Of a stretch of 64,000 bases of DNA, positions 4,159 through 55,917 are shown piece by piece. The first letter of the stretch is position 1, and the number at the start of each line of letters is the position of its first letter. The DNA is taken from contig NC_073745.1 in NCBI RefSeq assembly GCF_029784135.1, forward strand, positions 159,167,335 through 159,231,334, written 5' to 3'. The notes beneath the pieces are model-generated. The model did no database searches. It saw nothing but the letters and a program-made list of their open reading frames with translations, and had not been told where the DNA came from. The DNA is from Toxorhynchites rutilus septentrionalis. Taxonomy: Eukaryota > Arthropoda > Insecta > Diptera > Culicidae. A program made the position numbers and the translations under genes.

Positions 4159-4846
4159 GGTAGTGCGGACTGAATCAAAACGGCTGTCAAAAACAGGAAG
4201 TGGGTTATATCTATGGTATAACCGCAAGAGTGACGTAGGACTATCGTTGATTTAGAGATCATTTGTTTGAAGTTGAATCTAAATCCATCCTGAATGAATG
4301 AATAAATAAATATTTGGGAGACTTCAAAAACGAGAGTGTTACTTTGAAGACTCAAGGTTTTATGCATCCAATATTGGATACAAAAAACCTTGTTCTGAAG
4401 AATAATCTTCAGAAGCTTTCCTGTTAACTGCACTTGATTGACAAATCACAAAACCAAATGTATGTGGTCGCAGTATTATATGGATAGAAAACATTAAAAT
4501 AAACTCGCTTGAATGTAATTTTCAATTCCAAGGGGAACTGGCAGATTATTTTTCAGCAACGATCATTTCTTTCCAGGTTTCCTCTCGATAACCAGCAAAC
4601 GAAAAGAGTTGCGTGTATGTGTGTGTGTGTGGCGGCTGCTTCTATGTCTTCCCGAGGAACCGTATTTCGATGCTGATACTCTCTTGGTCACCTTCTCTTC
4701 TCCTTCTGATCGATCGGCCTTTCTGCGCTCCCTCACAGTTAAAACAAACTGATTGCATTTCAGGTCAGGTCAAGCCAGGTAATGAATACCTCGATCCCTC
4801 GCCGTTCAGCTCGTTCAGTAACGATGTTGTCTTGTCGATGTCCTCA

Positions 4847-4996
4847 GGCGTCGTGCACAAATTACGTAACGCAAAAATCCGGATTTTGAACCTCCCCCCC
4901 CTTTCGTAACGCAATTTCCTATCTCTAATAAACAGAAAGTAACGCAACATCTAACCCCTCTCCCCATATCGCGTTACGTAATTTGTGCACGACGCC
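4847..4996. mobile_element. 150-bp MITE with 26-bp TIRs and TCA target duplication
   Basis: The left end is GGCGTCGTGCACAAATTACG and the right end is its inverse complement; the match runs about 26 bp. The element is flanked by TCA on both sides (4844-4846 and 4997-4999), i.e. a 3-bp target duplication such as PIF/Harbinger-type elements make. It interrupts a sequence continuous in related copies (gatgtcctca/cgaaaaatgaatg, compare 47960-47995 inverse), which confirms it is an insertion. Confidence 0.85.
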
Positions 4997-5530
4997 TCAC
5001 GAAAAATGAATGGGTTTCACCACCAGAATATCATTTCAGTATGCTTTTCGTGCGTGATTGAATCGAGAGAAGGTGTGGTTTACGATGGCAATTTGGAAGG
5101 CAAACTAGAGGAGAATGAACTCTCTGAGTATGAAAATTTCGGCAACTGAGCAATAATCGATTGAAAATTATATAATTTTGGCGATACGAAACATTTTCCG
5201 TTTTTCATGTTATGCATCCATTATTGGATACGAAAATATCCTACTGATGGGAAAGAATAATCTTCAGAAGCTTTCCAGCTAATTACACTTGATTGAAAAA
5301 TTACGAAATCAAATGTATTTGGTCGCTGTGTTCGCCATATAATTAGAAAACATTAAAATAAACTCTTTCGCATGGATGTATTCTTCAATTCCCAGGGAAC
5401 TGGCAGATTATTTTTCAGCAACGATTAGATCTTTCCGGAATTTTCTCGATGCTGTATGGCATCCAAACGAAAATTCTCATTTCAGTTTGGCCTGCAAAAA
5501 ACTTTTCTGAACTCTAATCCATCAAATTTG

Positions 5531-5998
5531 GAGCCCTGAAAAGGGCCGTTGATTATATGCTAAGCTAATACAGCACCCTCTCCTTGGATTCGACGGGCCA
5601 GCTGAATGTCCTTGGGCATGATGTGACGCGTTTTACGTGGATAGCACACAAATTTGTATCTTCGAATAAGCCTCCTGCAGCGTCATAACCGCGGAACTTT
5701 GGAAGCGCAAGTCGGTTTTGAAGTCCTGAGCAATTCCACGAACCAAAAGCTGCAAAGGTAGCTTGCGGATCAGCAATTCGGCCGACTTCCGATAGCGATG
5801 AATTTCACGCAAAGTTCCCGGTCGATAGCGATGTGGCTTCTTCACCTATCCTGCGGCTGGTGCGCTTATCCGAGCTGCTTTCGTGTGCCTTACCACTGAA
5901 AGACTAACCTGCTATCTGCTTGGTCCCAAACAAACGAGTCGTCACGGTGCGAGAGTAGAGTAAGAAATGAACGAAAGCAAAGGAAGCGTCATTTTATA
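5531..5998 (-). pseudogene. Histone H3 pseudogene, copy a (with TATA box and 3' stem-loop)
   Basis: Reading the minus strand, a TATAAAA box lies near 5993 and an H3-like N-terminus (TKQ context) near 5915. The long H3 core [10 protein letters not shown]...[19 protein letters not shown]...[17 protein letters not shown] follows between about 5845 and 5690. Residues that canonical H3 has after RPGT (VA) and after LQEA (roughly SEAYLVG) are missing; the second loss shifts the frame so that CAIH and the [10 protein letters not shown] region are read in another frame. The gene ends with the histone 3' stem-loop at 5531-5548 (ggcccttttcagggctc on the minus strand). The N-terminal third also contains a stop. 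It cannot make H3, but promoter, body and processing signal are all recognisable, so the copy came from genomic histone DNA and not from mRNA. Confidence 0.85.
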
Positions 5999-6419
5999 AC
6001 CTGTTTTCGAAGCTATCATTAAGCTATTGAAACAATTTTCCGACTCAATAAATAGCAATCATATAACTCTTGGACATTTTATCTTTTGTATGAAATGATT
6101 ATCACTGTTCCGTTGATCCGAAGCAGAATGAATCACGCTTAAAGAAGGAATGGATTTTTTCTTGGAATTTACTCAGCAAAAATAATGCCCTTTCCCAACA
6201 CTTAAAAACGACAAACGGTAAACAGTTTCATCAAAGTGATTTCTTCGATATGGGGATATATTCACTACATCATGTCATGTATTTCATATTCTTCATTATG
6301 AAATCCATATCCATGGCACCTATCGGTATCGAATTATCATCGACACCGCGATTTTCGCTAAATGCTCCTTTCAGTTCGGCCTGTAAAAAACTTTTCTGAA
6401 CTCTAATCCATCAAATTTG

Positions 6420-6886
6420 GAGCCCTGAAAAGGGCTGTTGATTATATGCTAAGCTAATATAGCACGCTCTCCTCGGATACGATGGGCCAGCTGGATGTCC
6501 TTGGGCATGATGTGACGCGTTTTGCATGGATAGCACACAAATTGGTATCATCGAATAAGCCTCTTGCAGCGTCATAACCGCGGAACTTTGGAAGCGCAAG
6601 TCGGTTTTGAAGTCCTGAGCAATTCCACGAACCAAATGCTGCAAAGGTAGCTTGCGGATCAGCAATTCGGTCGACTTCTGATAGCGACGAATTTCATGCG
6701 AAGTTCCCGGTCGATAGCGATGTGGCTTCTCCACCTATCCTGCTACTGGTGCGCTTATCCGAGCTGCTTTCGTGGTGCCTTACCACCGAAGGACTAACGA
6801 GCTGTCTGCTTAGTCCCGATGAAACGAGTCCTCACGGTGCGAGAGTAGAGTAAGAAATGAACGAAAGCAAGGGAAGTGTCATTTTA
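6420..6886 (-). pseudogene. Histone H3 pseudogene, copy b (with TATA box and 3' stem-loop)
   Basis: This is a second minus-strand H3 derivative about 86% or more like copy a by eye. It has a TATAAAA box near 6882, [20 protein letters not shown]...[28 protein letters not shown] at about 6734-6580, and the same deletion after LQEA. The stem-loop is at 6420-6436 (agcccttttcagggct). The [12 protein letters not shown] stretch is closer to canonical H3 than in copy a. It forms the left arm of a palindrome with copy c, and the two TATA boxes face each other about 110 bp apart. Confidence 0.85.
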
Positions 6887-6994
6887 TAAAACATAAAAGA
6901 ATCGAATGTAAACCCCACCCTCTTTATTGTATAAGCTTACTGTATACTCACGAATATAATAAGGGTGGGATTTAGATTCTATACTTTTATGGTT

Positions 6995-7463
6995 TATAAA
7001 ATGACGCTTCCTTTGCTTTCGTTCATTTCTTACTCTACTCTCGCACCGTGAGGACTCGAGCTCGTTAGTCTTTCGCAGACAGCTCGTTAGTCATTCGGTG
7101 GTAAGGCACACGAAGTCAGCTCGGATAAGCGCACCAGTAGCACGATAGGTGGAGAAGCCACATCGCTATCGACCGGGAACTTTGCGTGAAATTCATCGCT
7201 ATCAGAAGTCGACCGAATTGCTGATCCGCAGCTACCTTTGCAGCATTTGGATCGTGGAATTGCTCAGAACTTCAAAACCGACTTGCGCTTCCAAAGTTCC
7301 GCGGCTATGACGCTGCAGGAGGCTTATTCGAAGATACAAATTTGTGTGCTATCCACGTAAAACGGGTCACATCATGCCCAAGGACATTCAGCTGGCCCGT
7401 CGAATCCAAGGAGAGGGTGCTATATTAGCTTAGCATATAATCAACGGCCCTTTTCAGGGCTCC
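6995..7463 (+). pseudogene. Histone H3 pseudogene, copy c (with TATA box and 3' stem-loop)
   Basis: This plus-strand copy has TATAAA at 6995-7000 and a transcription-start-like region near 7020-7045. The H3 N-terminal part is degraded. KPHRYRPGT begins near 7150, followed by the reading of ELLIRS and frames leading to [19 protein letters not shown]. The same post-LQEA deletion as copies a and b is present, and the stem-loop is at 7445-7463 (cggcccttttcagggctcc). An extra base change breaks the frame after LLIR. The shared deletion shows that the three copies amplified from one defective ancestor and were not captured three times. Confidence 0.85.
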
Positions 7464-9539
7464 AAATTTGGTGGATTAGAGTACAGAAAAGTTTTTTACA
7501 GGCCGAACTGAAAGGAGCATTTAGCGAAAATCGTGGTTTCGATAATAATTCGTTACCGATAGGTGCCATGGATATGGATTTCTTAACGAAGAATATGAAA
7601 TACATGACATGATGTAGTGAATATATCCGAAGAAATCACTTTGGTGAAACTGCATTATAAAATTATTTGTGTACGAATGCCGCAATCGATAGTCGACTCT
7701 AATTTGCGCTGGGTAATTTCCTCGGAGGACTCGATTCCTCCTTTGAACATTAATAATCTAATAATCTCTTTCTGGCAAAACGATGTGGTATGAATCACAT
7801 TATTTGAATGATAGAATGAAGAAGTTTTCTGCCAATTTCCTTCAACCTCCAAACGTATCTTTCTCCCGTTTGTCGTTTTCGCGTTCGCTAATCCTTTCTC
7901 ACAACACCCATTTCTCGTTTGAGAAATTGTTGAGTAAACATTGTTTGCCAGTGCGCGTAGAGCGGGAATTCCTAAAGATTCATTGCACCTCTAATAAATT
8001 GCCGAAAGACATGGTCTTACGTTGATCGCACTTGATTGAAAAAATCCAAAACGAAATGTATTTGGTCGCAGCATTATATGAGTAGAAAGCAAATAATCGC
8101 TCGAAAATGACTTGATTTTCGCGATGTGAAACATTTTCCGTTTTTCATGTTATGCATCCAATATTGGATACGAAAATTTCCACTGATGGGGAAAACAAAT
8201 ATTCAGAAGCTTTCCTGTTAATTGCGATTGATTGAAAAATAACAAAACCAAATGTATTTGGTTGCAGTGTTATATGGATAGAAAACATTAAAATAAACTC
8301 TTTCGCATGAATGTATTTTTCAATTCCCAGGGGAACTGGCAGATTATTTTTCAGCAACGATGATAGCAACGAGAATTCCGCGCGTGTATGTGTGTGTGTG
8401 TGTGTGGCGGCTGCTCCGATGTTTCAAGCGGAACCGTGGCATCACTCTCCTCCTGATGGATTCCCTTTTGGCCTTAGGTGTACAAACAGGCTCTTGGTGA
8501 AACCGTTCATCAGCGTTTTCATGATAAACGAAATTAGCTTCACAACAACAGCGACAACATGCTCCAATCGCTGTTCAATCATAACTGAGTGGGTTTACGA
8601 GCGGCGCTCGCTTATATACCGATTGGTGATTTCAATAGCCTGTTTTGAAAGCAATTTTAAGACTATTGAAACAAGTTTTTGGATCAAAAAGTAACAAGTA
8701 TATGACGCGTAGACATTTTATCTTTCAAATGAAGTGTTTATCATACCATTTCGTTCAGTTGTTTAAGAGCTATTAACGCTCAAAATCTCGGTCTCCAGCG
8801 TAACGCTTTCGTTCTCGAAACTTTGGTTTTACACCCCGGTATAGAAATGAAAGACGTAGTCCTACGTCAAAAAGATCCAATTGAAATGTCAAAAGAGATC
8901 CAACGATCAGGAGTGTTATTTTTCTTATGATAATCAACACTATTGTATTGTTATCGAAGGCAAAAATAATTAAACTTATAAAATAAACGAACTTCATTTT
9001 TCCGCCAATTGTTTAGTTGGCCATTGCATCTCTGAAAGAGAATCTCATATTCCAAGGTTTCAGAACCTGACCGAATATCAACAAACTACAAATAACGCTT
9101 AGTTCACTCCAAGATTTTTTTGTGGGAGCGAAATTCGACATTGGCGAATTTTGATACGTACATATATAGTAAAAGTGAAATGTTTTGGGGACGTTTTTTA
9201 TACAATGTACATTGTTATAGTTTAAGCGTGTGTTGTGTTTTGTCTCCGATGAAACGAGTCCCTCAATCTGCCACAGTGATGTGAAATTCCAAGCGAATGG
9301 AAAATCCCCGCTGCATCACTGCAATGAAGGCAGTCTGCATCGCGCCCACGGAGGGAATTTTGTTTCTCACGCTGGACAATCCGCATAAAGGCTGCTTTGG
9401 TATCACGCAGCGGGATTAAGTAGCAGTTTTTACAGTCCACTGCATTAAGACGCTATAAAAATAATCCTGAAAATGTGTATGAGAGGTTTGCTACACTTTT
9501 GGTTTTCAATAATTCAAACATCGTACTTATTCCACAGAT

Positions 9540-22507: not shown

Positions 22508-23837
22508 CAGGGTGGGCCATTTAAAGTGGAAGCATCTGGCAACCCCATAACTTTTGACAGAGATGTCAGATTAACAAATGTCATACCGCGTTGGAAGCGT
22601 CATTTCAGTACAATTTTAACCATGGAACAATACACACCTAAACAACGCGCTGAAATGGTTCAGCTGTACATTCAAAATAACTTCTCAATTGTGTTAACTA
22701 AACGTGCGTGGAAAAATAAAAATAAAGTTAAAACATCGCCTGGAGACAACACTATACGTCGATTATATGCCAAATTTATATCGTCTGGTAGTGTTGGTAA
22801 TGCCAGTTATCTGTCCAGACAACGACCAAGACGTTTCGACGAGAATATTGATGCCGTTCGAGCCAGTGTTGCAGAGACTCCATCGACATCAGGTCGCCAT
22901 CGTTCGCAAGAGTTAGGCATCGCTCGAACCACTCTCCGACGCATAATTCGTGTTGATTTGAAAATGTTTCCGTATAAAATTCAAATGGCTCAACAACTTA
23001 ACCCATCTGACTTACCACGTCGACTTGATTTTGCGAAATGGACCATCGAAATGGCCCATCGAAATGGCCAAAAATGAACGTGGCTTTTGGCAAAAAATCA
23101 TAATGTCTGATGAGGCGCATTTCAACTTGAATGGAGGAGTGAATAAACAACATTGTCGGTTTTATGCTACTGAAAACCCTCAATTCATCGAAACGCAACC
23201 TCTTTACGAGCAAAAAGTTACTGTGTGGTGTGGCATTTATGCCGATAAAGTCGTCGGCCCGTACTTCTTTGAAAACGAAAATGGAGCAACGGTGACCGTG
23301 AATGGGGAGCGTTATCGGACAATGATAACCGATTTTTTATTGCCATTTGTTCGTGAAAATGAATTGGACAATTACTGGTTCCAACAGGACGGCGCTACAT
23401 GCCATACAGCGGCTGCCACGACCAAATTATTGCGCGAAATGTTCCCTGGAAGATTAATATCGAAAAACGGCGATTATGACTGGCCACCGAGATCACCTGA
23501 TTTGACGCCTCCTGACTTTTTTTTATGGGGATATTTAAAATCCAAGGTATACACTGGTAAACCAAGGACCCTGGCTGCGCTGAAAGACAATATCCGACAA
23601 GAAATTGCTGCCATATCGGCCGAAACATTGGGCAAAGTGATGGAAAATGCCGAAAAAAGGGCACATTTTGCGGTCAAGGCCAGAGGCGGTCATTTACGAG
23701 ATATCATAATCAAAAAGTAGTTAGAACAAATCTCCTTGGACCAAAATAAATTAATTTCAAATTTTTTTTTTTTAAATTCCACTTCTTTACTTTGCTATTG
23801 CAAAAACAAATCCTTCCACTTTAAATGGCCCACCCTG
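22508..23837 (+). mobile_element. rosa-like (DD41D) IS630-Tc1-mariner element, near-intact, 1330 bp
   Basis: The left end CAGGGTGGGCCATTTAAAGT continues to 25 bp that match the right end exactly in inverse. TA dinucleotides flank both sides (22506-22507 and 23838-23839). It contains one transposase gene. Both TIRs and most of the coding frame are preserved, so the insertion is relatively young. Confidence 0.9.
22622..23720 (+). pseudogene. DD41D (rosa-like) mariner transposase, one frame lesion
   Basis: The gene starts MEQYTPKQRAEMVQLYIQNN, the usual start of insect transposases of this group. It has N-terminal helix-turn-helix DNA-binding regions (about residues 1-120). The catalytic core follows with aspartates in MSDEAHFNLNGG, FQQDGATCHT and SPDLTPPDFFLWGY. 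Counting from the second Asp to the Asp of PPD gives 41 intervening residues, the DD41D signature of the rosa/Visitor group (known family feature). It ends GGHLRDIIIKK. The single lesion is a 13-bp tandem duplication of ccatcgaaatggc at about 23043-23070, which shifts the frame; the rest is open on both sides. It acts in the nucleus, cutting and pasting at TA sites. Confidence 0.88.
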
Positions 23838-24059
23838 TATGTGTTCGTTGCCGGCTGAACAATAACCCCGGCAACATTTGCATCGCTCGACATTTACACG
23901 ACAAATTTTGATTTTTTCGTATTTGAATCTAAACGTTTGAGTGTTTGCTGAGTGCTGAGGTTTTATTTTATCCTTTGATTTTTCTTCTGCAATTTTGTAC
24001 ATGAAAAGTTGGTCATTCTGGGATCTGTGCTCCATTATATTCGAATAATGGACACCCTT

Positions 24060-24120
24060 TGGTGTAGTCCTACTTCTCTCCGGTTATGTTCCCGACATTA
24101 CCCACCCGTCTTTTTTAATT
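24060..24120 (+). mobile_element. E10: 3' end fragment of a subfamily-2 Helentron-like element
   Basis: The sequence gtagtcctacttctctccggttatgttcccgacattacccacccgtctttttt reproduces the 3' module of E2 (58037-58090), with the hairpin CGGTTAT...ATTACCC. No 5' end belonging to it is seen. 24120-24720 beyond it holds an eroded copy of the repeat at 12830-13010 and nothing coding. Confidence 0.65.
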
Positions 24121-27640: not shown

Positions 27641-28854
27641 TTTGACGTTGGATTACGTCTTTCGGGAACATATTGGGGTACAAATTGAAAATCGAAAATC
27701 GATTACATCGTGAAAATTGTCCAATTTCAAACGCTTATTGCTCAGTCATTTAATGATGGATTGATGACATTTTTGCGTCAATCGATTTCGGTACTCCATA
27801 ACAATTTTTTATATTGAAAAAAATAATCTCATCCCCTATCCTAACGGAAATACCCACTTCTGATTGGTCGAAATTGACGACACATGCGGCGAGTCCCTAA
27901 CAGAGACATCAAAACCATGCTGCATGGGGGAAATCGGTATTGCAAATACATTAAAGTAGGGGGAGCTTATGTTCCTATCGAAATGTGTTCACTAACAGAG
28001 ACATCAAAACCAAGGTGCTCGGGTAAATCGGCATTGCAAATATATGCAAGTCGGGGGTTGCTCCATGAAATTTCATATCAATGACCGATCGTTTATTGTG
28101 AAAAATTTAGCACAAGTGTAAGTGTAAAATTGTATATGGTAGCAGTTGTGCTAAGAATGACTTGATATATGAAACAATTTATTTTAATTTCCTAAAATTA
28201 AAAACCAAGGTGTGTTCCCGCTCGAGAACGGGTCGTTTAGTTTGAGCTGTCTGTTTTTTACGGCGAGAAAAATTGGAAAAGTGAAGAAATATTGGAAAAA
28301 GTGATTTCCCATATCCTCTCTATATAGTATTAGGTGTTGTTAGTCCGATTAAAATTGAATTGGGTTGAATAAACACTCAGAAAGTAAAAATTATAAAGAA
28401 AAGAATACCTTTTCCATTTCAAATATGTTTTCTCTATATTAAAGTAACATGTTTTTACTGATAAGGAAAAATTATAATTGTGTTCGGTATTGGTAATTGT
28501 CTTATGTTACATTGGTGAGTTTTTTTTCTTTATTTCATACATACATATCACAGGAGGCATCTCGTCTAGGATCACAGAGGGCGGTTTTCATCATATATCG
28601 TTCCACTTCGGTATCTTTTATCTGATACGCACCATCCAACGACTGTTTACCATCCTTCTGCCATCATCACTCGATAAACACTGGTGGAGTTAACATACAA
28701 TACCCAACAACCAAACAAAACGGGTCTTTTCAGGGCCACCATATCAAAGAGTTTAATGATGTAATTCTTCAAACATATCCAAAACCAACAGATAGTCTAA
28801 CGGAATCCTACGTCAACTATGCGGTCGTGTCTCGGACACAACCCTCATGTGACT
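27641..28854 (+). mobile_element. E8: Helentron-like element, subfamily 3 (1.2 kb)
   Basis: It starts TTTGACGTTGGATTACGTC tttcgggaac. It ends with the set-back inverted motif GGAATCCTACGTCAA, the hairpin GGTCGTGTC-TCG-GACACAACC, and a T-run. The interior has two 107-bp repeat units (27890-28070), a (aagtgt)n-like tract, and a histone-derived segment closing with a histone stem-loop. E9 is a second copy. Confidence 0.72.
28530..28737 (+). pseudogene. Probable histone H2B relic with 3' stem-loop
   Basis: A histone stem-loop GGGTCTTTTCAGGGCC lies at 28722-28737 with the usual CCACC-type flank. Upstream, one frame reads QEASRLGSQRA, like the EASRL of H2B. The nucleotides around ccaacgactgttt...ccttctgccat...aaacactggtggagt align by eye with the H2B C-terminal coding region (QTAVRLLLPGELAKHAVSE). 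Multiple indels destroy the frame. The stem-loop is certain; the H2B assignment is moderate. Confidence 0.55.
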
Positions 28855-30063: not shown

Positions 30064-31146
30064 AAAACAGGAAGTGGGTTATATCTATGGTATAACCGCA
30101 AAGGTGACGTAGGACTATCGTTGATTTAGAGATCATTTGTATGAAGTTGAATCTGAATTCATTCTGAATGAATGAATATTTGGAGAACTTCGAAAACGAG
30201 AGCGTTACGTTGGAGGCACAAGGTTTTATGCATCCAATATTGGATACGGAAATATCCTACTGATGGGGAAGAATAATCTTCAGAAGCTATCCTGTTGATT
30301 GCGATTGATTGAAAAATCACAAAACCTAATGTATTTGGTCACAGTGTTACATGGATAGAAAACATTAAAATAAACTCTTTCATATGAATGTAATTTTAAA
30401 TTCCCAGAGGAACTGGCAGATTATTTTCAGTAACGATTAGATATTTCCACATTTTCCTCGATACTGGAAGCCCACCAGTGGTTAATGCTAACTCGATAAC
30501 CATCTGTTAATTGATTGATTGAAACATATTTGGTCACAGTGTTACATGGATAGAAAACATTCAAATAAACTCTTTCACATGAATGTATTTTTAAATTCCT
30601 AGAGGAACTGGCAGATTATTTTCCGGATCTTTCTCGATCCAAACGGAAAGAATTCCGTGCGTGTATGTGTGTGTGTGTAGCGGATGCTTCGAGATCTTCC
30701 CGGGGAACCGTTTGTAGCATCACTCTCCTCCTGATGGATTCCCTTCTGGCCTAAGGTGCACAAACAGGCTCTTGGTGACACCGTTCATCCGCGCTTTCAT
30801 GATAAATGAAGAGCTTCACCACAACAGCGACAACATGCTCCAATCGCTGTTCAATTAGAACTGAGTGGATTTCCGAGCGGCGCTCGCTTATATACCGATT
30901 GGTGATTTCAATAGCCTATTTTGAAAGCAAATTTAAGACTATTGAAACAAGTTTTTGGATCAGAAAGTAACAAGTATAGAACGCGTAGACATTTTATCTT
31001 TCGAATGAAGTGTTTATCATACCATTTCGTTCAGTTGTTTAGGAGCTATTAACACTCAAAATCTCGGTCTCCGGCGTAACGCTTTCGTTTTCGAAACTTT
31101 GATTTTACATCCCGGTATAGAAATGTAAGACGTAGTCCTACGTCAA
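30064..31146 (-). mobile_element. E4: Helentron-like element, subfamily 1, short form (1.08 kb)
   Basis: On the minus strand it starts near 31146 with TTGACGTAGGACTACGTC (tacatttctataccggg) and ends near 30064 with TAGTCCTACGTCAC, the hairpin GGTTATA...TATAACC, and CCACTTCCTGTTTTG. The interior has the TATA-containing leader (tatataagcgagcggcgctc, about 30880-30900), microsatellite (gt)n, and two units related to the E5 satellite. It lacks the H3 segment of E3. Confidence 0.75.
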
Positions 31147-40917: not shown

Positions 40918-41199
40918 TTTGATGTAGGATTACGTCTTTCGGGAACATATTGGGGTACAAATTGAAAATCGAAAATCGAGTACATCGTGAAAATTGTCCA
41001 ATTTCAAACGCCTATTGCGCAGTCATTTAATGATGGATTGATAAAAATGCGTCAATCGATTTCGACACTCAATAACGATTTTTTATATTGAAGAAAATAA
41101 TATATGTCATGAACCTAACTAATGAACAATTGTAAAATCTCAACCCCTATCCCAACGGAAATACTCACTTCTGATTGCTCGAAATTGACGACACATGCG

Positions 41200-41475
41200 G
41201 CGGGTGCCTAACAGAGACATTAAAACCAAGCTGCCTGGGGGAAATTGGCATTGCAAATACATGAAAGTAGAGTGAACTTTTCTTCCTACCCAAATGTGTT
41301 CCCTAACAGAGACATCAAAACCAAGCTGCCTGGGTGAAATCGGCATTGCAAATACATAAAAGTAGGGGGGAACTTTTGTTCCTACCGAAATGTGTTCCCT
41401 ATCAGAGACATCAAAACCAAGCTGCCTGGAGGAAATTGGCATTGCAAATATATGCAAGCCGGAGGAATTTTCATA
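41200..41475. repeat. 107-bp-type tandem units in E9
   Basis: Three units of 'aacagagacatcaaaaccaa / gctgcctgggggaaat / tggcattgcaaatacatg / gttcctaccgaaatgtgttc'. They are the same family as 14370-14945. Confidence 0.7.
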
Positions 41476-41484
41476 TTGCAAGTA

Positions 41485-41861
41485 CCCAGCAAACATTAAA
41501 TCGTATAACTTTGCACATGATAAGTCACATATAATGTCGTATCAAATCACAATCGCATAAAATATCAATCAAAATATCGATCATATATATCTAAAATCGC
41601 ATAAAATGCAAAAACACGACTTTCCATGTCATCGATGGATTGAGTGGTAACGTTGTCGTATCAAATCGCATATCAGTCCAAAAAGCATCGCATATCGTTA
41701 TATACGGCTTTATATGCGTGCAAAATATGGCATATACGTATATCGCCTCCACTTTTGTGTGTATATGCTAGTTATCTGCATCATATATCATACAAATGTG
41801 TCTTGGTTGTATGTATATCGCCTCCAATTATAGCTATTCATACGACTTAATGTTTGCTGGG
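41485..41861 (-). mobile_element. M1-type MITE, 377 bp, second copy
   Basis: It is the inverse of 944-1320, equal in length, with both termini. It is separated from the following M2 copy by TATGGT. Confidence 0.8.
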
Positions 41862-41867
41862 TATGGT

Positions 41868-42830
41868 CCCAGCAAACATTAAATCGTATAATTTTGCACG
41901 TGCCAAGTCTTACAAGAAATCCGAATAAATCATAATCGCAAATAATATCAATCAAAGTATGTATCGTGTATATTTGAAATCGCATAAAATGTGAAAACTC
42001 GATTTTATATACCATTATCAAATTAAGTCGCAATTCGGTATAACAAACATCAATTTTATGATGTACATTGTCGTAACATATATTTAATCCGCATTATATG
42101 CGTATATTACGCTGATGCAGTTTGTGTGTCGTATAAGCGTATAATTTCAATCGATTCAATACTTTAGTAAATCGTGTTGCATGCTGAGGAGAATCATGAA
42201 ACAGTAAATCACATTAGATCCTAATAAAGAACATATTACATCATATTGAAATGTCAATGAAAAGCTGATACCCTCGAAAGTTTTAACCGCCGTTGAATTA
42301 AATTTCAGATAGCCGCGCGAGATAGCTGGTGGATGATAATCCAGACGACCGGAGTTCGAACCCACATCGGAGCAGTTTTCACCAAACATCAATCTGTGCC
42401 ATTTCAAACATTCATATTCCACTCCCAACACAAGTCAATCAAACAATTATTATTTCTACGAACATAAGTACTCATATATAAAAATGGCGATTCGTGAGGT
42501 TGTAATAAACATTTCACGAAAATATTTTGCGCCATTTGTTTTTTTCTATGTCTGTAATAAATCGTATAGGAGTATGGCGAAAGCCGTATTTGGTGCTTTG
42601 ACAATTCATGAATATATTCATATTAGATCGCAATTCAATTCCAACATAATCGCTATTATAGTCGGTCAAAGTTGCATATTCATCCAAACAAATTCGGTAA
42701 GCATTTGCCATGTATGTATATGGCCTCCACTTTTGCATGCATATGCCAGTTAGGCGCATTATATGCCAACCAAATTTTAGGGCATATGATGTTATATATA
42801 CGCTTGTTATGCGATTTAATGTTTGCTGGG
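41868..42830 (-). mobile_element. M2-type MITE, copy E, complete (963 bp)
   Basis: It has CCCAGCAAACATTAAATCG at the left and its inverse at the right. It is in the inverse orientation to 2238-3198. Confidence 0.8.
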
Positions 42831-43616
42831 GTGCGTGATACGATTAATTCTAGCAAATAAAATATAAATTTGGAACTTTAATGTTGGTTGCTTCGTGAAT
42901 TTCATATCAATGACGGATCGTGTATTGAGAATAATTTAGCACAAGTAAAGTGTAAGTGTAAGTGTAAGAGATAGCTGGTGGATGATAATCCAGACGACCG
43001 GAGTTCGAACCCACATCGGAGCAGTTTTCACCAAACATCAATCTGTGCCATTTCAAACATTCATATTCCACTCCCAACACAAGTCAATCAAACAATTATT
43101 ATTTCTACGAACATAAGTACTCATATATAAAAATGGCGATTCGTGAGGTTGTAATAAACATTTCACGAAAATATTTTGCGCCATTTGTTTTTTTCTATGT
43201 CTGTAATAAATCGTATAGGAGTATGGCGAAAGCCGTATTTGGTGCTTTGACAATTCATGAATATATTCATATTAGATCGCAATTCAATTCCAACATAATC
43301 GCTATTATAGTCGGTCAAAGTTGCATATTCATCCAAACAAATTCGGTAAGCATTTGCCATGTATGTATATGGCCTCCACTTTTGCATGCATATGCCAGTT
43401 AGGCGCATTATATGCCAACCAAATTTTAGGGCATATGATGTTATATATACGCTTGTTATGCGATTTAATGTTTGCTGGGGTGCGTGATACGATTAATTCT
43501 AGCAAATAAAATATAAATTTGGAACTTTAATGTTGGTTGCTTCGTGAATTTCATATCAATGACGGATCGTGTATTGAGAATAATTTAGCACAAGTAAAGT
43601 GTAAGTGTAAGTGTAA
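42319..43616 (+). repeat. Exact 649-bp tandem duplication
   Basis: 42319-42967 is repeated directly as 42968-43616 with no difference noticed. The unit joins most of an M2 element to part of E9 (gataatttagcacaagtaaagtg...), so its borders do not coincide with element ends. Confidence 0.88.
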
Positions 43617-44029
43617 AATTGTATATGGTAACAGTTGTGTTAAAAATGACTTGGTATATGAAACGATTTAATTCAATTTTCATAAATAAAAACCAAGTTG
43701 TGTTCCCGCTCGAGAACGAGTCGTTTGGTTTAAGCTGTCTGTAATGTTGTGTTCATTTTCACCCAAGGAATGTTTAACGGCGAGAAAAATTGGAAAAGTG
43801 AAGAAATAGTGATTTCCCATATGCTCTACATATAGTATTAGGCGCTGTTAGTCCAATTAAAATTCGCACTGGGTTAAATAATCACTCAGAAAGAAAAATT
43901 ATTAAAAAAATACCTTTCCCATTTCAAATATGTTTTCTCTATATTAAAGTAACATGTTTTACTGATGAGAAAAATTGATAATTGTGTTCAGTATTGGTAA
44001 TTATATTATATTCCATTGGTGAGTTTTTT

Positions 44030-44215
44030 TTTATTTATTTCATCCATACATATCACAGGAGGCATCTCGTCTAGGATCACAGAGGGCGGTTTTCATCATA
44101 TCTCGTTCCACTTCGGTATCTTTTATCTGATACGCACCTTCCAACGAGTGTTTCTCATCCTTCTGACAGCATCACTCGGTAAACACTGGTGGAGTGAACA
44201 AACACTACCCAACAA
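44030..44215 (+). pseudogene. Histone H2B-like relic in E9
   Basis: It matches the E8 segment (aggaggcatctcgtctagg ... cttctgacagcatcactcggtaaacactggtggagtgaac). The histone stem-loop that follows in E8 is deleted here. Confidence 0.45.
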
Positions 44216-44340
44216 CCAAACCAAATAATTATCAAAGAGTCTAACGATGTTCAAACATATCCAAAATCAACAGATAGCCTAACGGAATCCTACATCAAAT
44301 ATGCGGTCGTGTCTCAGACACAACCCTCCTGTGACTTTAT

Positions 44341-45742: not shown

Positions 45743-48690
45743 TTTTGACGTAGGACTACGTCTTTCATTTCTATACCGGGGTGTAAAATCAAAGTTTCGA
45801 AAACGAAAGCGTTACGCCGGAGACCGAGATTTTGAGCGTTAATAGCTCCTAAACAACTGAATGAAATGGTATAATAAACACTTCATTCGAAAGATAAAAT
45901 GTCTACGCGTTATATACTTGTTACTTTTTGATCCAAAAACTTGTTTCAATAGTCTTAAAATTGCTTTCAAAACAGGCTATTGAAATCACCAATCGGTATA
46001 TAAGCGAGCGGCGCTCGGAAATCCACTCAGTTCTAATTGAACAGCGATTGGAGCATGTTGTCGCTGTTGCGGTGAAGCTCTTTATTTATCATGAAAGCGC
46101 GGATGAACGGTGTCACCAAGAGCCTGTTTGTGCACCCTAGACCAGAAGGGAATCTATCAGGAGGAGAGTGATGCCACAAACGGTTCCCTGGGAAGACATC
46201 GCTACACACACATACACGCGCGGCTATTAACAGGTGGTTATCGAGTTGGCATTAAACACTGGTGGGCTTCCAGTATCGAGGAAAATGTGGAAATATCTAA
46301 TCGTTACTGAAAATAATCTGCCAGTTCCTCTGGGAATTTTCAAAATATATTCATGTGAAAGAGTTTAATTGAATGATTTCTATCCATGTTACACTGTGAC
46401 CAAATATGTTTCAATCAAGTGCTATTAACAGGTGGTTATCGAGTTGGCATTAACCACTGGTGGGCTTCCAGTATCGAGGAAAATGTGGAAATATCTAATC
46501 GTTACTGAAAATAATCTGCCAGTTCCTCTGGGAATTTTCTAAATATATTCATGTGAAAGAGTTTAATTGAATGTTTTCTATCCATGTAACACTGTGACCA
46601 AATACATTTGGTTTTGTGGTTTTTCAATCAATCGCAATTAACAGGATAGCTTCAGAAGATTATTCTTCCCCATCAGTAGGATATTTCCGTAACCAATATT
46701 GTATGCGCCCGCAATCGATTATTGCTCAGTCGCCGAAAGTTCCGAGCTCAGAGAGTTCATTCCCCTCTAGTTTGCCTCCCAAATTGCTATCGTAAACCAC
46801 ACCTTCTCTCGATTCAATCACACACAAAAAGCATACTTAAGCGATATTCTGGTGGTGAGACACATTCATTTTTCGTGAGGACATCGACAAGACAACATCG
46901 TTGCCTAACGTGCTGGAGGAGGTGGACGGCGAAGGATCGACACATACACGCGCCGAACTCTTTCCGTTAGGATGCCATTCAGCATCGAGAAAGTTCCGGA
47001 AAGATCTAATCATTGCTGGAAAATAATCTGCCAGTTCCTTTGGGAATTTTCAAAATATATTCATGTGAAAGAGTTTAATTGAATGTTTTCTATCCATGTA
47101 ACACTGTGACCAAATATGTTTCAATCAAGTGCTATTAACAGGTGGTTATCGAGTTGGTATTAACCACTGGTGGGCTTCCAGTATCGAGGAAAATGTGGAA
47201 ATAACTAATCGTTACTGAAAATAATCTGCCAGTTCCTCTGGGAATTTTCAAAATATATTCATGTGAAAGAGTTTAATTGAATGTTTTCTATCCATGTTAC
47301 ACTGTGACCAAATATGTTTCAATCAAGTGCTATTAACAGGTGGTTATCGAGGTGGCATTAACCACTGGTGGGCTTCCAGTATCGAGGAAAATGTGGAAAT
47401 ATCTAATCGTTACTGAAAATAATCTGCCAGTTTCTTTGGGAATTTTCAAAATATATTCATGTGAAAGAGTTTAATTGAATGTTTTCTATCCATGTTACAC
47501 TGTGACCAAATATGTTTCAATCAAGTGCTATTAACAGGTGGTTATCGAGTTGGCATTAACCACTGGTGGGCTTCCAGTATCGAGGAAAATGTGGAAATAT
47601 CTAATCGTTACTGAAAATAATCTGCCAGTTCCTTTGGGAATTTTCAAAATATATTCATGTGAAAGAGTTTAATTGAATGTTTTCTATCCATGTAACACTG
47701 TGACCAAATACATTTGGTTTTGTGGTTTTTCAATCAATCGCAATTAACAGGATAGCTTCAGAAGATTATTCTTCCCCATCAGTAGGATATTTCCGTAACC
47801 AATATTGTATGCGCCCGCAATCGATTATTGCTCAGTCGCCGAAAGTTCCGAGCTCAGAGAGTTCATTCCCCTCTAGTTTGCCTTCCAAATTGCCATCGTA
47901 AACCACACCTTCTCTCGATTCAATCACACACAAAAAGCATACTTAAGCGATATTCTGGTGGTGAGACACATTCATTTTTCGTGAGGACATCGACAAGACA
48001 ACATCGTTGCCTAACGTGCTGGAGGAGGTGGACGGCGAAGGATCGACACATACACGCGCAGAACTCTTTCCATTAGGATGCCATTCAGCATCGAGAAAGT
48101 TCCGGAAAGATCTAATCATTGCTGGAAAATAATCTGCCAGTTCCTTTGGGAATTTTCAAAATATATTCATGTGAAAGAGTTTAATTGAATGTTTTCTATC
48201 CATGTAACACTGTGACCAAATATGTTTCAATCAAGTGCTATTAACAGGTGGTTATCGAGTTGGTATTAACCACTGGTGGGCTTCCAATATCGAGGAAAAT
48301 GTGAAAATAACTAATCGTTACTGAAAATAATCTGCCAGTTCCTTTGGGAATTTTCAAAATATATTCATGTGAAAGAGTTTAATTGAATGTTTTCTATCCA
48401 TGTAACACTGTGACCAAATACATTTGGTTTTGTGGTTTTTCAATCAATCGCAATCAACAGGATAGCTTCTGAAGATTATTCTTCCCCATCAGTAGGATAT
48501 TTCCGTATCCAATATTGGATGCATAAAACCTTGTGCCTCCAACGTAACGCTCTCGTTTTCGAAGTTCTCCAAATATTCATTCATTCAGAATGAATTCAGA
48601 TTCAACTTCATACAAATGATCTATAAATCAACGATAGTCCTACGTCACCCTTGCGGTTATACCATAGATATAACCCACTTCCTGTTTTTT
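45743..48690 (+). mobile_element. E5: Helentron-like element, subfamily 1, expanded by satellite (2.95 kb)
   Basis: It starts TTTTGACGTAGGACTACGTC tttcatttctataccgggg. It ends TAGTCCTACGTCACCC, GGTTATACCATAGATATAACC and CACTTCCTGTTTTTT. A TATA-like leader (ggtatataagcgagcggcg, 45996-46014) with a gattgg motif lies near the 5' end, as in E3 and E4. Most of the interior is a repeat array. Confidence 0.77.
46405..48420 (+). repeat. 198-bp satellite organised in a 1106-bp higher-order repeat
   Basis: The unit (tttcaatcaagtgctattaa ... acactgtgaccaaata) starts near 46411, 47121, 47319, 47517 and 48227. Spacings are 710, 198, 198 and 710, giving a 1106-bp period made of 198-bp units plus a 710-bp variant. 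The 710-bp variant includes the gagagaaggtgtggtttac segment that E3 also carries. Copies 1106 bp apart (for example 46722-46970 and 47828-48076) are nearly identical. Confidence 0.85.
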
Positions 48691-52402: not shown

Positions 52403-52992
52403 TATATGTTTGTGAAACGGTCTAGTATAAGAATTTAATGCTTTTGTGTTTTTGACGTAGGACTACGTCTAACCGGAAGATATAGGGGGTGAAATGGAAA
52501 TCTAGGCACTGAACAAGTAGGAAAAAATGCAAGATTTGGAACGTTTATAACTCGAGCATTTCTCAATAGATCGCAAAGGTTTTTGCATCAATTGATAGGA
52601 AATATATCTACGCATCTATCATAACGAATAACATTTCATTTTTCTTGAGATAAATAATTGAATAATTGTGAAATATCAAGCATTGTCCAAATGCACTATG
52701 TGCCCATTTTCGATTGGTCCATTTTGTGCTCCTCAAATCGTACCGACCAAAACGGGCAACCAGAGCAGCAGCGAAATAGAATGAAGCACGATTGGAAAGG
52801 AAAAAGAAAAAAAAAGTCGGGTGGGTAATGTCGGGGACATAACCGGAGTGACGTAGGACTATACAAAGGGGACAGCTTTTGTTAAATATATATTTTAAAT
52901 ATATTGTTTTATTTCCTTCTCCTACGTGAATACCTACCTATCTACCTGAAAAATGGATTAGTTTACTGTTTACTCTTTATGAATATGTTGAT

Positions 52993-53554
52993 GGTTCTGA
53001 AAAGAACCTTTGGTGTTGTGTTTTTGTTATCACTCGATATTCCCATCTTGTTCGGTTAAACCTTCCTGTTTAGCTATTGCGTTTGCCACTCGCCACAGCT
53101 TTCACAGTTGGAAAATTTATTCCCATCCAGCTTGTGACATATTGTTCAGTAAATTACATTTAATGCGACGTGCCGGAGAAACACTTTGCCACTCACTGAA
53201 ACTAATTGTTGCCTTGATGAGCGCCGAACCGAAGCTGCTCTGTTCTTGATGCGGGTTTTCTGATTGTCGTGAGCAGCTTTGCAAGCCAACTCGAGCACTC
53301 CGACGACCGAAACTCTATAATCGCTGTTAGGTATACTGGTGCTCCGGCACCAATCCGTTCGGCCTAGTTACCCTTGCGGAGCAATCAGTGAATGCGACCA
53401 ACAGGGAACTGGAGACCTGCACGGTTCGAGTGAGACTTTGCCTTTCCTTAACTTGTCCTCCTTTGTTACGTCCACGATGCCGATGCCGTACAACCACACG
53501 GGTTTACGGTTTGAAAGAAAATAAGATATTTTTTTGGGGTCCGCGTGTTTTATA
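52993..53554 (-). pseudogene. Histone H2A pseudogene i (E1), with TATA box and stem-loop
   Basis: Minus strand: TATAAA at 53554-53549, a TCAAACCGTAAAC leader motif, then an H2A-like body. The nucleotides encode, across shifted frames, the GKGG-VKGKAKS-SNRAGLQFPVGRIH, LLRKGN, AERVGAGAPVYL and VLELA segments of H2A (53470-53260). The C-terminal third is replaced by unrelated sequence. The 3' end has a perfect histone stem-loop, GGTTCTTTTCAGAACC, at 52993-53008. Confidence 0.82.
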
Positions 53555-53713
53555 CTCTAGCGGTACACACTCACAGGATAGAGACAAATCGGCAGACTCA
53601 GCCAGAGGGGCGAGTCCAACGAGACGAACGAATGAGCGTTAAAAGGGAGCGATTGCAAAAAATACATTTATTACGATTTGTTCGCTCGTTGGATTCACAT
53701 GCAGGCTAAAAAG

Positions 53714-53729
53714 GGTCCTTTTCAGGATC
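53714..53729 (+). terminator. Histone-type 3' stem-loop without recognisable gene
   Basis: GGTCCTTTTCAGGATC on the plus strand, opposite in direction to the H2A copies in E1. The mirrored copy in E2 is at 56512-56527 (minus). The DNA upstream (53590-53712) is not recognisably a histone. Confidence 0.7.
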
Positions 53730-53759
53730 ACAAAATTATCTTCAATCTAAAGAGTTTAT

Positions 53760-54310
53760 TGTTTTGTTATCACTCGATATCCCCATCTTGTTCGGCTAAA
53801 CCTTCCTGTTAAGCGATTTGTTGCCACTCGCCACAGCTTTCACAGTTGGAAAATTTCTTCCCATCCAGTTTTGTGACATGTTGTACAGTAAATTACATTC
53901 AATGCGACGTGCCGAAGCGCCACTCAGTGACGCATTGGAGGCGATTTTAACCTGTAATTGAACATTTGCGATGACAGTGGACAGTGTCGACTTTCAATGT
54001 GGGGTCATAATTTGGATCTCTATGTACACAAATGTCCAACTAAATAAGTCGCATTACATGTCCGTCCAATTAGCTAAATGTCGAACTAATTGTAAATTAC
54101 TGTACTTTCAATCTGGAAACAATTTAAGAATTGGTGAAAATTGAATAATCAGGAAAGTCCCCAACTATCAATAAGCTCAGAACAACTGCCAAATTCACAT
54201 ACTCGTCAGATCCTGGCAAACAAATTAAGAAAAAATCAATTTGTGTTTTATTATTATTTTGGATAATGTTTTAGAAAGCATTGAACTGTATTCCCTAAAC
54301 TCTTTTTTGG
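53760..54310. other. E1 spacer, no gene
   Basis: It is the mirror of 55925-56480 in E2. It holds repeats of gcgacatg..., gtaaattac... and no coding frame. Confidence 0.5.
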
Positions 54311-54320
54311 AAGGTTTAAT

Positions 54321-54840
54321 GGCCCTGAAAAGCGCCTTGTTTTATGGAATGGTTCCAATTTAGAAAACTTTGTACTCGTGGTTTTGAAAAAAAACCATTT
54401 CGAACGCCCTCGATGCCGCCTTGTTCTGGATTTGCCACCAAAGCAGATTGTATAAAGAACAAACTATTTTCTTCTGCTACCAGCTGCCGTTTTGCGATTG
54501 CGTTTGCCATTCACCACTCGTTGCAACTGCCTGTTGACTTGATGTCCACCGAACCGAATGTGTTCTGTTCCGAATGCGGGTTTTCTTATCGTCGCGAGCA
54601 GCTTTGCCAGCCAACTCGATCACTTCGGCGGCCGAAACTATATAACGCCGACTAGGTGGACTGGTGCACTGGTACTAACGCGCTCGGCCTAGCTACCCTT
54701 GCGGGGAACTCCAGATCAACACGGTTCGAGCGGGATTTTGCCTTTCCCTTCACTTTTCCTCCTTTACCATGTCCAGACATGGCTGCTTGGGTTGGTTTGT
54801 TGATGTGTTGTGATGCGAACCGATGTGGTGTACGGTTTGA
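54321..54840 (-). pseudogene. Histone H2A pseudogene ii (E1), with stem-loop
   Basis: Minus strand: the H2A N-terminus is almost perfect, GHGKGGKVKGKAKSRSNR, near 54785-54725. The stretch that encodes VGRIHRLL is deleted, and LEFP joins RKG- and AER-like sequence in another frame. The VIELA-like helix follows (54640-54600). The stem-loop GGCGCTTTTCAGGGCC is at 54336-54321. Upstream is the same TCAAACCGTACAC motif as in copy i, but the TATA box is less clear (CTTAAAAATCC). Confidence 0.85.
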
Positions 54841-55449
54841 ATGAGAATGATCGTTGCGGCAGCGGAGCGGGGATTTTTAAGCTGACTGGCTGGCTCGAGA
54901 ATTACGCATGTGTGAGACTGCGACCAATGTTTCGTTCATTTTTTTCTTTTTCCTTTCCAATCGTGCTTCATTCTATTTCGCTGCTGCTCTGGTTGCCCGT
55001 TTTGGTCGGTACGATTTGAGGAGCACAAAATGGACCAATCAAAAATGGGCACATAGTGCATTTTGACAATGCTTGATATTTCACAATTATTTAATTATTT
55101 ATCTCAAGAAAAATGAAATGTTATTCGTTATGATAGATGCATAGATATATTTCCTATCAATTGATGCAAAAACCTTTGCGATCTATTGAGAAATGCTCGA
55201 GTAATAAGCGTTCCAAATCTTGCATTTTTTCCTACTTGTTCAGTGCCTAGATTTCCATTTCACCCCCTATATCTTCCGGTTAGACGTAGTCCTACGTCAA
55301 AAGAACGAAACATTGGTCGCAGTCTCACACATGCGTAATTCTCGAGCCAGTCAGTCAGCTTAAAAATCCCCGCTCCGCTGCCGTAACGATCATTCTCATT
55401 CAAACCGTACACCACATCAGTTCGCATCACAACACATCAACAAACCAAA

Positions 55450-55917
55450 CCAAGCAGCCAAATCTGGACATGGCAAAGGAGGAAAAATTAAGGGAAAGGC
55501 AAAACCCGCTCGAATCGTGTCGGTCTGGAGTTCCCCGCAAGGGTAGCTAGGCCGAGCGCATTAGTACCAGTGCACCAGTCCACCAAGCCGGCGTTATATA
55601 GTTTCGGCCGCCGAAGTGATCGAGTTAGCTGCCAAAGCTGCTCGCGCCGAAAACAAAACCCGCATTCGGAACAGAACACATTCGGTTCGGTGGACATCAA
55701 GTCAACAGGCAGTTGCAACGAGTGGTGAATGGCAAACGCAATCGCAAAACGGCAGCTGGTAGCAGAAGAAAATAGTTTGTTCTTTATACAATCTGCTTTG
55801 GTGGCAAATCCAGAACAAGGCGGCATCGAGGGCGTTCGAAATGGTTTTTTTCAAAACCACGAGTACAAAGTTTTCTTAATTGGAACCATTCCATAAAACA
55901 AGGCGCTTATCAGGGCC
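55450..55917 (+). pseudogene. Histone H2A pseudogene iii (E2), with stem-loop
   Basis: This is the plus-strand counterpart of copy ii in E2. It reads GKGGKIKGKAKP near 55467, has the same deletion before RKG, and then AAEVIELAAKAARAENKTRI (55612-55665), like [20 protein letters not shown] of H2A. The stem-loop GGCGCTTATCAGGGCC is at 55902-55917, with one loop change. Sharing the deletion with copy ii shows that the capture predates the split of E1 and E2. Confidence 0.82.

What the first reader, a model, noticed from the sequence alone, without database searches (positions are those of the whole stretch)
4190..8872. Mobile elements that carry whole histone gene units (promoter, body and 3' stem-loop)
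Seen: three H3-derived units in E3 and four H2A-derived units in E1/E2. Most have a TATA box, all have part of the coding body, and all have the histone 3' stem-loop; E8 has a probable H2B unit with a stem-loop. Each lies between the same kind of element ends. Known: replication-dependent histone mRNAs end at this stem-loop and are not polyadenylated, so they are rarely retroposed; capture of genomic gene pieces with promoters is a known habit of Helitrons and some MULEs. Inference: one element lineage has captured different core histone genes in different subfamilies and amplified them. The retained promoters and stem-loops could make S-phase transcripts from the element, or provide homology for recombination with the histone cluster.
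Basis: partly seen in the sequence, partly recalled or inferred. Interest (0 to 1): 0.93.

Follow-up and report, generated by a model that had tools for sequence, protein, structure and literature searches.

The report
Histone-carrying rolling-circle transposons in elephant mosquito
A family of jumping DNA in a mosquito has picked up pieces of histone genes, including their on-switches and their special end signal, and in the complete copies read those pieces flank the gene that makes it jump, so it may be expressed like a histone gene.

Summary
Three H3-derived units (4190-8872) and four H2A-derived units (52.4-58.1 kb) lie inside mobile elements. These are non-autonomous Helentrons (HINEs): 16-nt palindromic subTIR at the 5' end, matching subTIR plus palindrome near the 3' end, insertion in T-runs without target duplication. 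The host is probably Toxorhynchites rutilus (99% over a sulfatase gene). E3 is dispersed: 26 full-length copies (window's own included) at 97-100% among 32 scored of 5,753 candidates. The histone pieces are genomic DNA, not retrocopies: promoter, DNA beyond the stem-loop, and a divergent H2B-H2A pair with the H2B body deleted. Most match one of two host array types best; the H3 was broken before dispersal. Prior art: a Culex Helentron with two histone fragments (2014). New: in autonomous Helentrons the probable first transposase exon starts about 170 nt past a captured H2A promoter (2 of 2 copies of one family), and a histone stem-loop plus AAAGAG lies 288-472 nt past the stop, in sense (3 of 3 loci, two families). 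The window's H2A elements are related by deletion. Histone-like, S-phase expression of the transposase is inferred, not shown; 8 E3 copies show no extra constraint on promoter or stem-loop.

The parts
4190..8870 (-). E3: non-autonomous Helentron (HINE) with one H1 piece and three H3 units; 5' end at 8870, 3' end at 4190
   Evidence: ends and T-run flanks in 8 copies, this one included; 26 full-length copies of 32 scored
8853..8868 (-). 5' palindromic subTIR GACGTAGGACTACGTC
4203..4223 (-). 3' palindrome GGTTATACCATAGATATAACC; 3' subTIR at 4232-4243
5471..5999 (-). H3 unit 1 (TATA, broken body, stem-loop 5532-5547)
6360..6889 (-). H3 unit 2 (stem-loop 6421-6436)
6994..7522 (+). H3 unit 3, inverted relative to unit 2 (stem-loop 7446-7461)
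8479..8547 (-). H1 coding piece, 81% over 69 bp to host type II H1
30064..31146 (-). HINE of the E3 type with H1 piece 30757-30823
45745..48689 (+). HINE of the E3 type with H1 piece 46085-46134 and 198-bp tandem repeats
52452..58085 (+). H2A/H2B-bearing HINE (element 8), interrupted by element 9; shares leader and 3' end with the autonomous Helentron
52815..55300 (-). H2A/H2B-bearing HINE (element 9) nested in element 8 at an A/T run
56431..56532 (-). H2B 3' end: stem-loop plus about 80 bp downstream of it, 89% to host type II H2B
56542..56585 (-). piece upstream of H2B, 86% to host type II
56594..57047 (+). H2A promoter and body (unit 2), 78% to host type II H2A; stem-loop 57198-57213
55389..55665 (+). 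H2A unit 1 of element 8 (stem-loop 55902-55917)
53247..53646 (-). H2A unit 2 of element 9, 80% to host type II H2A, without its own stem-loop
53709..53810 (+). H2B 3' end in element 9 (antisense to the element)
54574..54851 (-). H2A unit 1 of element 9 (stem-loop 54321-54336)
57738..57855 (+). leader piece of the autonomous Helentron (between H2A promoter and transposase ATG), 86%
57876..58088 (+). 3' end of the autonomous Helentron, 91%; degenerate histone stem-loop 57902-57917
52815..53026 (-). 3' end of element 9, 97% to autonomous Helentron L042 8126-8337, with intact stem-loop 52993-53008 (Rfam 41 bits) and AAAGAG
27642..28850 (+). HINE of a third type; stem-loop 28722-28737 plus AAAGAG near its 3' end, in sense
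13876..15220 (-). HINE with 95-bp tandem repeats; no histone body found
40919..44340 (+). HINE related to 27642-28850, with a 2.2-kb insert; stem-loop deleted
19300..24110 (+). tentative pair of HINE ends enclosing other repeats
   Evidence: ends only

Best explanation
The elements are non-autonomous Helentrons (rolling-circle transposons). Autonomous partners hold histone-gene DNA taken from host histone arrays: an H2A promoter and H2A/H2B pieces upstream of the transposase gene in one family, and histone 3' ends (stem-loop plus AAAGAG) downstream of it in both families examined. HINEs lost the transposase gene, kept histone pieces in varying mixtures, duplicated them inside the element (E3: three H3 units) and spread into T-runs by copying. 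Shown by sequence: element class, ends, T-run insertion, genomic-DNA origin of the pieces, one clade of H3 pieces beside host type II H3, common lesions before dispersal, shared leader and 3' end of element 8 and the autonomous copies, H2A promoter and stem-loop around the transposase gene. Inferred: capture through Helentrons sitting in the arrays (read-through past a 3' end, or joint transposition of two flanking elements); use of promoter and stem-loop for transposase expression.
For: Ends and flanks: nine 5' ends and nine 3' ends in the window; 8 of 8 full E3 copies (the window's own included) start after T-runs and end before T-runs, with unrelated flanks. Nested insertions give empty sites without duplication: element 9 in element 8, and an E3 copy (L007) in an element-8/9 copy. 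Genomic-DNA capture: H2B 3' flank + H2B upstream + H2A promoter + H2A body in native divergent order, H2B body deleted. Origin: 9 HINE H3 bodies form one clade, 99/97, beside host type II H3 (100/100); 6 H2A units split from 5 host rows, 96/93. Helentrons inside host arrays: one between H1 and H2B of the C3 unit read, H2A-bearing ones in the C2 array with a 5' end 128 bp from an H4 stem-loop, and a 57-bp remnant of a 3' end beside 2 of 4 H4 genes read on C113 and in 9 of 12 host loci. Autonomous element: L042 frame of 1,674 aa with Helitron_like_N, PIF1 and Exo_endo_phos and the Helentron sign RGSPH; its 3' 212 bp are 97% identical to element 9; stem-loop 40.5 bits in both copies. H2A promoter block 170-171 nt before an ATG exon homologous to N-termini of Aedes albopictus Helentron proteins (best E 7e-20 among 120 N-termini).
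Against: The 5' terminus of the autonomous copies was not reached: no 5' subTIR in 4.6 kb (copy 1) and 7 kb (copy 2) before the main frame. For family 2 no histone DNA was found in the 3 kb before its Rep domain. Other Rep families were not examined. Family 1 has AATAAA 113 nt before the stem-loop and another after it. The stem-loop lies 288-472 nt past the stop, against 21-41 nt in five host genes. In 8 E3 copies stem-loop and TATA regions are no less variable than the rest (4/78 and 9/199 variable sites; spacer 77/2173, H3 bodies 76/1083, whole 213/4683). Element 8 has an H2A body between promoter and leader that the two autonomous copies lack, so the derivation is not a simple deletion of the present autonomous copies. 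E3's stem-loop flank is closest to type I H2B, not to type II H3, so the units are mosaic or their donor is lost.
Confidence: 0.82

Rival explanations
1. Passive baggage: histone arrays are multi-copy and hold Helentrons, so histone DNA is captured often; promoter and stem-loop do nothing for the element.
For: The HINE histone bodies read are broken; no extra constraint on TATA or stem-loop in 8 E3 copies; Helentrons sit inside the arrays; AATAAA signals exist in family 1.
Against: In 2 of 2 copies of family 1 the captured promoter lies directly before the probable transposase exon 1; 3 of 3 autonomous 3' ends (two copies of family 1, one of family 2) have the stem-loop plus AAAGAG in sense, at 40.5 bits in family 1, close to the best host gene at 41.3; family 2 shows no AATAAA or ATTAAA between stop and 3' end.
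Confidence: 0.55
2. Capture by repair: histone DNA entered as filler when a break inside a Helentron was repaired, not by rolling-circle read-through or joint transposition.
For: The captured pieces are internal and related elements keep the same 3' end.
Against: Helentrons lie beside several histone genes in the arrays, which suits joint transposition. No call separates the two.
Confidence: 0.35
3. Escaped array units (orphons): the ends are part of the host histone repeat and the copies are dispersed array DNA.
For: Helentron ends occur in host arrays.
Against: Ends occur at independent T-runs with unrelated flanks in 8 of 8 E3 copies and on elements with only an H1 piece or none found; none was seen in the 20 kb read of array C470.
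Confidence: 0.03
4. Retroposed histone transcripts inside a TIR transposon or MITE.
For: Inverted repeats at both ends; dispersed broken copies.
Against: Promoter DNA, about 80 bp past the stem-loop, antisense H2B pieces beside sense H2A; palindrome near one end, no target duplication; Rep/PIF1/endonuclease partner.
Confidence: 0.02

Closest known systems
Helentron-Cq-32A of Culex quinquefasciatus (Thomas, Vadnagara and Pritham 2014, PMC4067079; outline, passages, and sections 4 part 1, 8, 15, 17, 27 seen)
   Same: Helentron with broken fragments of two histone genes, 8 copies; palindromic subTIRs, 3' stem-loop, TT insertion. One fragment is called 'H4 superfamily', but its parent is 408 bp, the length of an H3 frame, so it is probably H3; the other is H15 (H1 type).
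   Different: What I saw reports coding fragments only: no promoter, no histone mRNA stem-loop, no H2A/H2B, no position relative to the transposase start. That these are absent there is not shown.
HINE / DINE-1 elements (same paper)
   Same: Non-autonomous elements with subTIRs, palindrome, T-run insertion, tandem repeats in some copies.
   Different: No histone cargo is reported for HINEs in what I saw; here subfamilies carry H1, H3, H2A, H2B pieces.
hAT transposon with histone H3 in Pseudocercospora and relatives (Dhillon et al. 2019, PMC6710886; outline with abstract, and passages seen)
   Same: A DNA transposon spread hundreds of broken H3 copies.
   Different: TIR transposon with target duplications; captured an intron-free H3, taken by the authors as transcript or retrocopy; no promoter reported.
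Replication-dependent histone genes of the host
   Same: Promoter, short intronless body, stem-loop and AAAGAG in the captured units.
   Different: Bodies broken; in the autonomous element the transposase gene, with a probable intron, stands between promoter and stem-loop.

Membership tests
Helentron/HINE | 12-15 bp palindromic subTIR 2-4 nt from the 5' end | tested here: met
   16-nt GACGTAGGACTACGTC (14 of 16 self-complementary, read from the letters) right after the T-run; 9 in window with up to 2 substitutions
Helentron/HINE | second subTIR 38-60 bp from the 3' end | tested here: met
   TAGTCCTACGTC 38 nt plus Ts before the end in E3; 34 nt plus Ts in elements 8/9, at the lower edge (counted)
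Helentron/HINE | palindrome 8-35 bp from the 3' end | tested here: met
   GGTTATACCATAGATATAACC, 9 nt from the end; element-8 type 8 nt
Helentron/HINE | insertion in T-rich sequence, no target duplication | tested here: met
   8 of 8 E3 copies; two nested empty sites
Helentron/HINE | autonomous partner with Rep, PIF1 helicase and endonuclease, sharing the 3' end | tested here: met
   L042 domains; 3' 212 bp 97% identical to element 9; E3-type 3' end 81-83% in L046
Helentron/HINE | partner shares the 5' end too | tested here: inconclusive
   5' terminus of the autonomous copies not reached
Helitron (canonical; features recalled) | 5' TC, 3' CTRR, insertion between A and T | tested here: not met
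   T-run flanks and 3' ...CCTG or ...CCCGTC
TIR DNA transposon / MULE (features recalled) | inverted repeats at both very ends with target duplication | tested here: not met
   one repeat lies inside a palindrome-bearing end; no duplication
Helentron-Cq-32A of Culex | same subTIR sequence and orthologous histone capture | not testable with these tools
Functional replication-dependent histone gene | intact coding frame | tested here: not met
   H3: shared deletions and lost ATG; H2A: stops

The most novel reading that the evidence does not exclude
Mosquito Helentrons express their transposase as a pseudo-histone mRNA: started at a captured histone promoter and ended at a captured histone stem-loop by SLBP and U7, without a poly(A) tail. 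That would tie rolling-circle transposition to S phase. A hint from a second genus: a Culex quinquefasciatus gene model of a Helentron protein (P0256, 2,066 aa) has H2B residues at 136-190, near its N-terminus (62% over 55 residues, E 6e-17 among 120 proteins; best of 20 shuffled sets 0.002). The arrangement may be an old or a repeated trait.
Probability: 0.3. Interest if true: 0.9.

Novelty: new variant of a known kind. Interest (0 to 1): 0.72.

Why it matters
How rolling-circle transposons time their replication in animals is, as far as I know, open. A transposase gene between a histone promoter and a histone 3' end makes S-phase coupling directly testable. The elements also scatter many histone-like sequences (83 non-canonical H3 matches among 150 scored; 10,446 first-look candidates, mostly unscored and including real genes), which matters for H3-based markers and gene annotation, and possibly for recombination or small RNAs aimed at histone arrays. 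The host arrays themselves hold Helentrons.

Tried and rejected
Histone-cluster reading of 52-58 kb: rejected, the bodies are broken. H2B unit in 'E8': not found. 55843-55858 and 54380-54395 as real stem-loops: no AAAGAG follows; treated as chance. Gene conversion among E3's three units: 31 of 103 minor alleles shared with another unit against 16 expected under a uniform model; too weak to claim. A Culex protein (P0254) with an H3-like 12-mer: E 0.19 (0.008 with short-query settings), at the level of shuffled controls; not used. Genomic tally of copies by terminus, and a count of H2A elements: those searches did not complete. Viral contigs: 0 hits for the 5' end. The listings of my 10 paper searches showed no transposon with a histone promoter or histone stem-loop around its transposase gene; the library holds open-licence papers only.


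Full report
Host and frame. The window lies in a 902.6-Mb assembly. The window's N-acetylglucosamine-6-sulfatase gene, exons joined by hand, is 99% identical over its whole length to the Toxorhynchites rutilus septentrionalis protein; the next named hit is Topomyia yanbarensis at 71%. I therefore take the host to be T. rutilus.

Observation. Self-comparison shows E3's three H3 units as 530-bp repeats at 92-93%, the third inverted, and the two H2A elements as 93-97% copies in opposite orientation. Rfam's histone stem-loop model lists 12 matches in the window at E up to 10, one above the gathering score. AAAGAG, the core that pairs with U7 RNA (recalled), starts 9-20 nt past 7 of 13 stem-loop-like sites; chance for a 45-nt stretch is 0.017. 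The other six lack it, among them the three E3 sites (they read TTAGAG) and the degenerate 3' site of element 8.

What the elements are. Nine 5' ends (TTGACGTAGGACTACGTCT, up to 2 substitutions) and nine 3' ends (seven by pattern, two of another type read by eye) occur in the window. The 3' end has the reverse of the same 12-mer followed by a palindrome, 8-9 nt before a T-run. In 8 of 8 full-length E3 copies, the window's own included, the 5' flank ends in Ts and the 3' flank starts with Ts, and flanks are unrelated. Element 9 is nested in element 8, and an E3 copy (L007) sits at the same T-run of an element-8/9 copy; neither shows a target duplication. These are the features of Helentron-associated elements (HINEs) in Thomas et al. 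2014, PMC4067079: palindromic subTIRs, 3' palindrome, insertion in Ts without duplication, tandem repeats in some copies. Element 45745-48689 has 198-bp tandem repeats.

Spread. Searching E3 in its genome scored 32 of 5,753 first-look candidates: 26, the window's own included, span the query (97-100%), and all 32 cover the H3 units. Because the query carries H3, this says nothing about copies without H3. Eight full copies differ by 0.3-1.8%, so the burst is recent. An H3 protein search scored 150 of 10,446 candidates: 67 frames without stops at 93-100% over all or nearly all of H3, and 83 others. I fetched 8 of those 83, chosen by hand; 7 lie in DNA of these elements (in L036 the ends recognised belong to a nested element), one (L035) is an intron-bearing H3 gene. 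Two of the 7 (L037, L040) are 1.4-1.8-kb elements with a single H3 unit, so E3 looks like a composite of an H1-bearing and an H3-bearing HINE with later unit duplication; that is inference.

Origin of the histone DNA. The host has at least two array types. Type I (C113, C2, C470) has divergent H2A/H2B and H3/H4 pairs. Type II (C3, 24.2-kb unit) has genes far apart. The captured H3 bodies form one clade (99/97) beside type II H3 (100/100), at 83-89% identity against 74-78% for type I. The 7 units that reach the place share a 16-nt deletion and lack the host's start codon, and all 9 share a 1-nt deletion; so the H3 was broken before it dispersed. Six H2A units also separate from 5 host rows (96/93). 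Element 8 carries, in order, the H2B 3' flank and stem-loop (102 bp, 89%), a piece upstream of H2B (44 bp, 86%), and the H2A promoter and body (456 bp, 78%). That is a divergent H2B-H2A pair with the H2B body deleted, and it includes about 80 bp beyond the stem-loop. Retroposition does not give this. H1 pieces (50-69 bp, 81-86%) lie in E3 and the elements at 30064 and 45745; the reversed-sequence control gave no hit. E3's stem-loop flank is closest to type I H2B (53 bp, 85%), which no single donor explains.

Helentrons in the arrays. A Helentron 99-100% identical to the window's element at 13876 lies between H1 and H2B of the type II unit read; H2A-bearing HINEs lie in the C2 array, one with its 5' end 128 bp from an H4 stem-loop; a 57-bp remnant of a 3' end lies about 370 bp past the H4 stem-loop beside 2 of 4 H4 genes read on C113, and in 9 of 12 host loci. 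The 20 kb read of C470 shows none. So the donors of histone DNA are also targets. Joint transposition or read-through from such insertions is the most likely capture route in my view; repair capture is not excluded.

The autonomous element. PF14214 gave 132 matches in the genome (150 of 1,313 candidates scored); several have long open frames. I examined two families; the others were not read. L042 holds a 1,674-aa frame with Rep, PIF1 and endonuclease domains and the Helentron signature. Its 3' 212 bp are 97% identical to the 3' end of element 9 and include a canonical stem-loop, 40.5 bits, with AAAGAG, in sense, 472 nt past the stop; the second copy has the same. Nine host stem-loops score 24-41 bits. 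Upstream, both copies carry H2A/H2B pieces like element 8, and then an H2A promoter block (91% to host positions -188 to -88, with the TATA-like TACAAAA) that ends 170-171 nt before an ATG. The frame from that ATG is homologous to the N-termini of annotated Aedes albopictus Helentron proteins (E 7e-20 and 8e-18 for the best two of 120 N-termini), so it is the probable first exon of the transposase; the main frame starts 3.3 kb on, which implies an intron that I did not map. In a second family, L046 starts 3.2 kb past the Rep match and in phase with it (the middle was not fetched); its frame ends in the same endonuclease motif, followed by a stem-loop with AAAGAG, 22.9 bits and below the gathering score, 288 nt past the stop, by no AATAAA or ATTAAA, and by an E3-type 3' end. 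In 3 kb before its Rep domain no histone DNA was found. A third 3' end type (window 28722) has the stem-loop too, but its relative at 40919-44340 has lost it. Element 8 joins the leader of the autonomous element (57738-57855) to its 3' end (57876-58088), the transposase gene being absent between; unlike the autonomous copies it still has an H2A body between promoter and leader, so in those copies the promoter seems to have been brought next to the leader by a deletion.

Mechanism and doubts. The simplest account is that histone promoter and 3' end were taken up by autonomous Helentrons, and HINEs inherit, shuffle and multiply them. Use for transposase expression is an inference. For: position in 2 of 2 promoters and 3 of 3 3' ends, intact stem-loop in family 1, no poly(A) signal in family 2, and H2B residues near the N-terminus of a Culex Helentron gene model. 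Against: AATAAA before and after the stem-loop in family 1, a long distance from stop to stem-loop (five host genes: 21-41 nt), no constraint seen among E3 copies, and passive capture from arrays that hold Helentrons. Gene models can fuse neighbours by mistake.

Known and new. Histone fragments in a Culex Helentron are published; [quoted passage not shown] A fungal hAT with H3 is published. In the searches listed under Tried and rejected I found no report of a transposase gene with a histone promoter or histone stem-loop. The name SMART 00428 = H3 and the roles of SLBP and U7 are from general knowledge, not from a call.

Noticed in passing
window 24876-26760 (-): Host N-acetylglucosamine-6-sulfatase gene with short introns; used to name the host.
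   Followed up: yes
window 32229-36477 (-): Frames of an interrupted LTR retrotransposon; one was scanned and has an integrase core, the others look like pol and gag by eye.
   Followed up: partly
window 62258-63205 (+): Uninterrupted 315-aa Tc1/mariner-type transposase frame (DDE_3, HTH); resembles mosquito ITmD37E (recalled).
   Followed up: partly
window 39241-40367 (-): Transposase pieces; the one scanned (39241-39663) has DDE_Tnp_4, as in PIF/Harbinger elements (recalled).
   Followed up: partly
window 42319-43616: Exact 649-bp tandem duplication inside a repeat shared with 1-3490; may be real or an assembly artefact.
   Followed up: no
window 37216-37618 and 11581-11746: 104-bp tandem repeat starting TTAA, with inverted copies; looks like a TTAA element family.
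   Followed up: no
window 45376-45589: 8-bp tandem repeat GAGCTGTT, about 27 copies, some 150 bp before the element at 45745.
   Followed up: no
window 6890-6993: About 105-bp near-palindromic spacer between the head-to-head H3 units 2 and 3; may be a small nested element.
   Followed up: no
L029-L031 (C3:233.55-233.58M): Second type of host histone array with widely spaced genes and an inserted HINE; its H3 is 100% identical in protein but 82-83% in DNA to type I.
   Followed up: partly
L035 (C1:172.747M): H3 gene with a 58-bp interruption, probably an intron-bearing H3.3-type gene.
   Followed up: no
protein P0256 (Culex quinquefasciatus): Gene model that fuses 55 residues of H2B to a Helentron protein.
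   Followed up: partly
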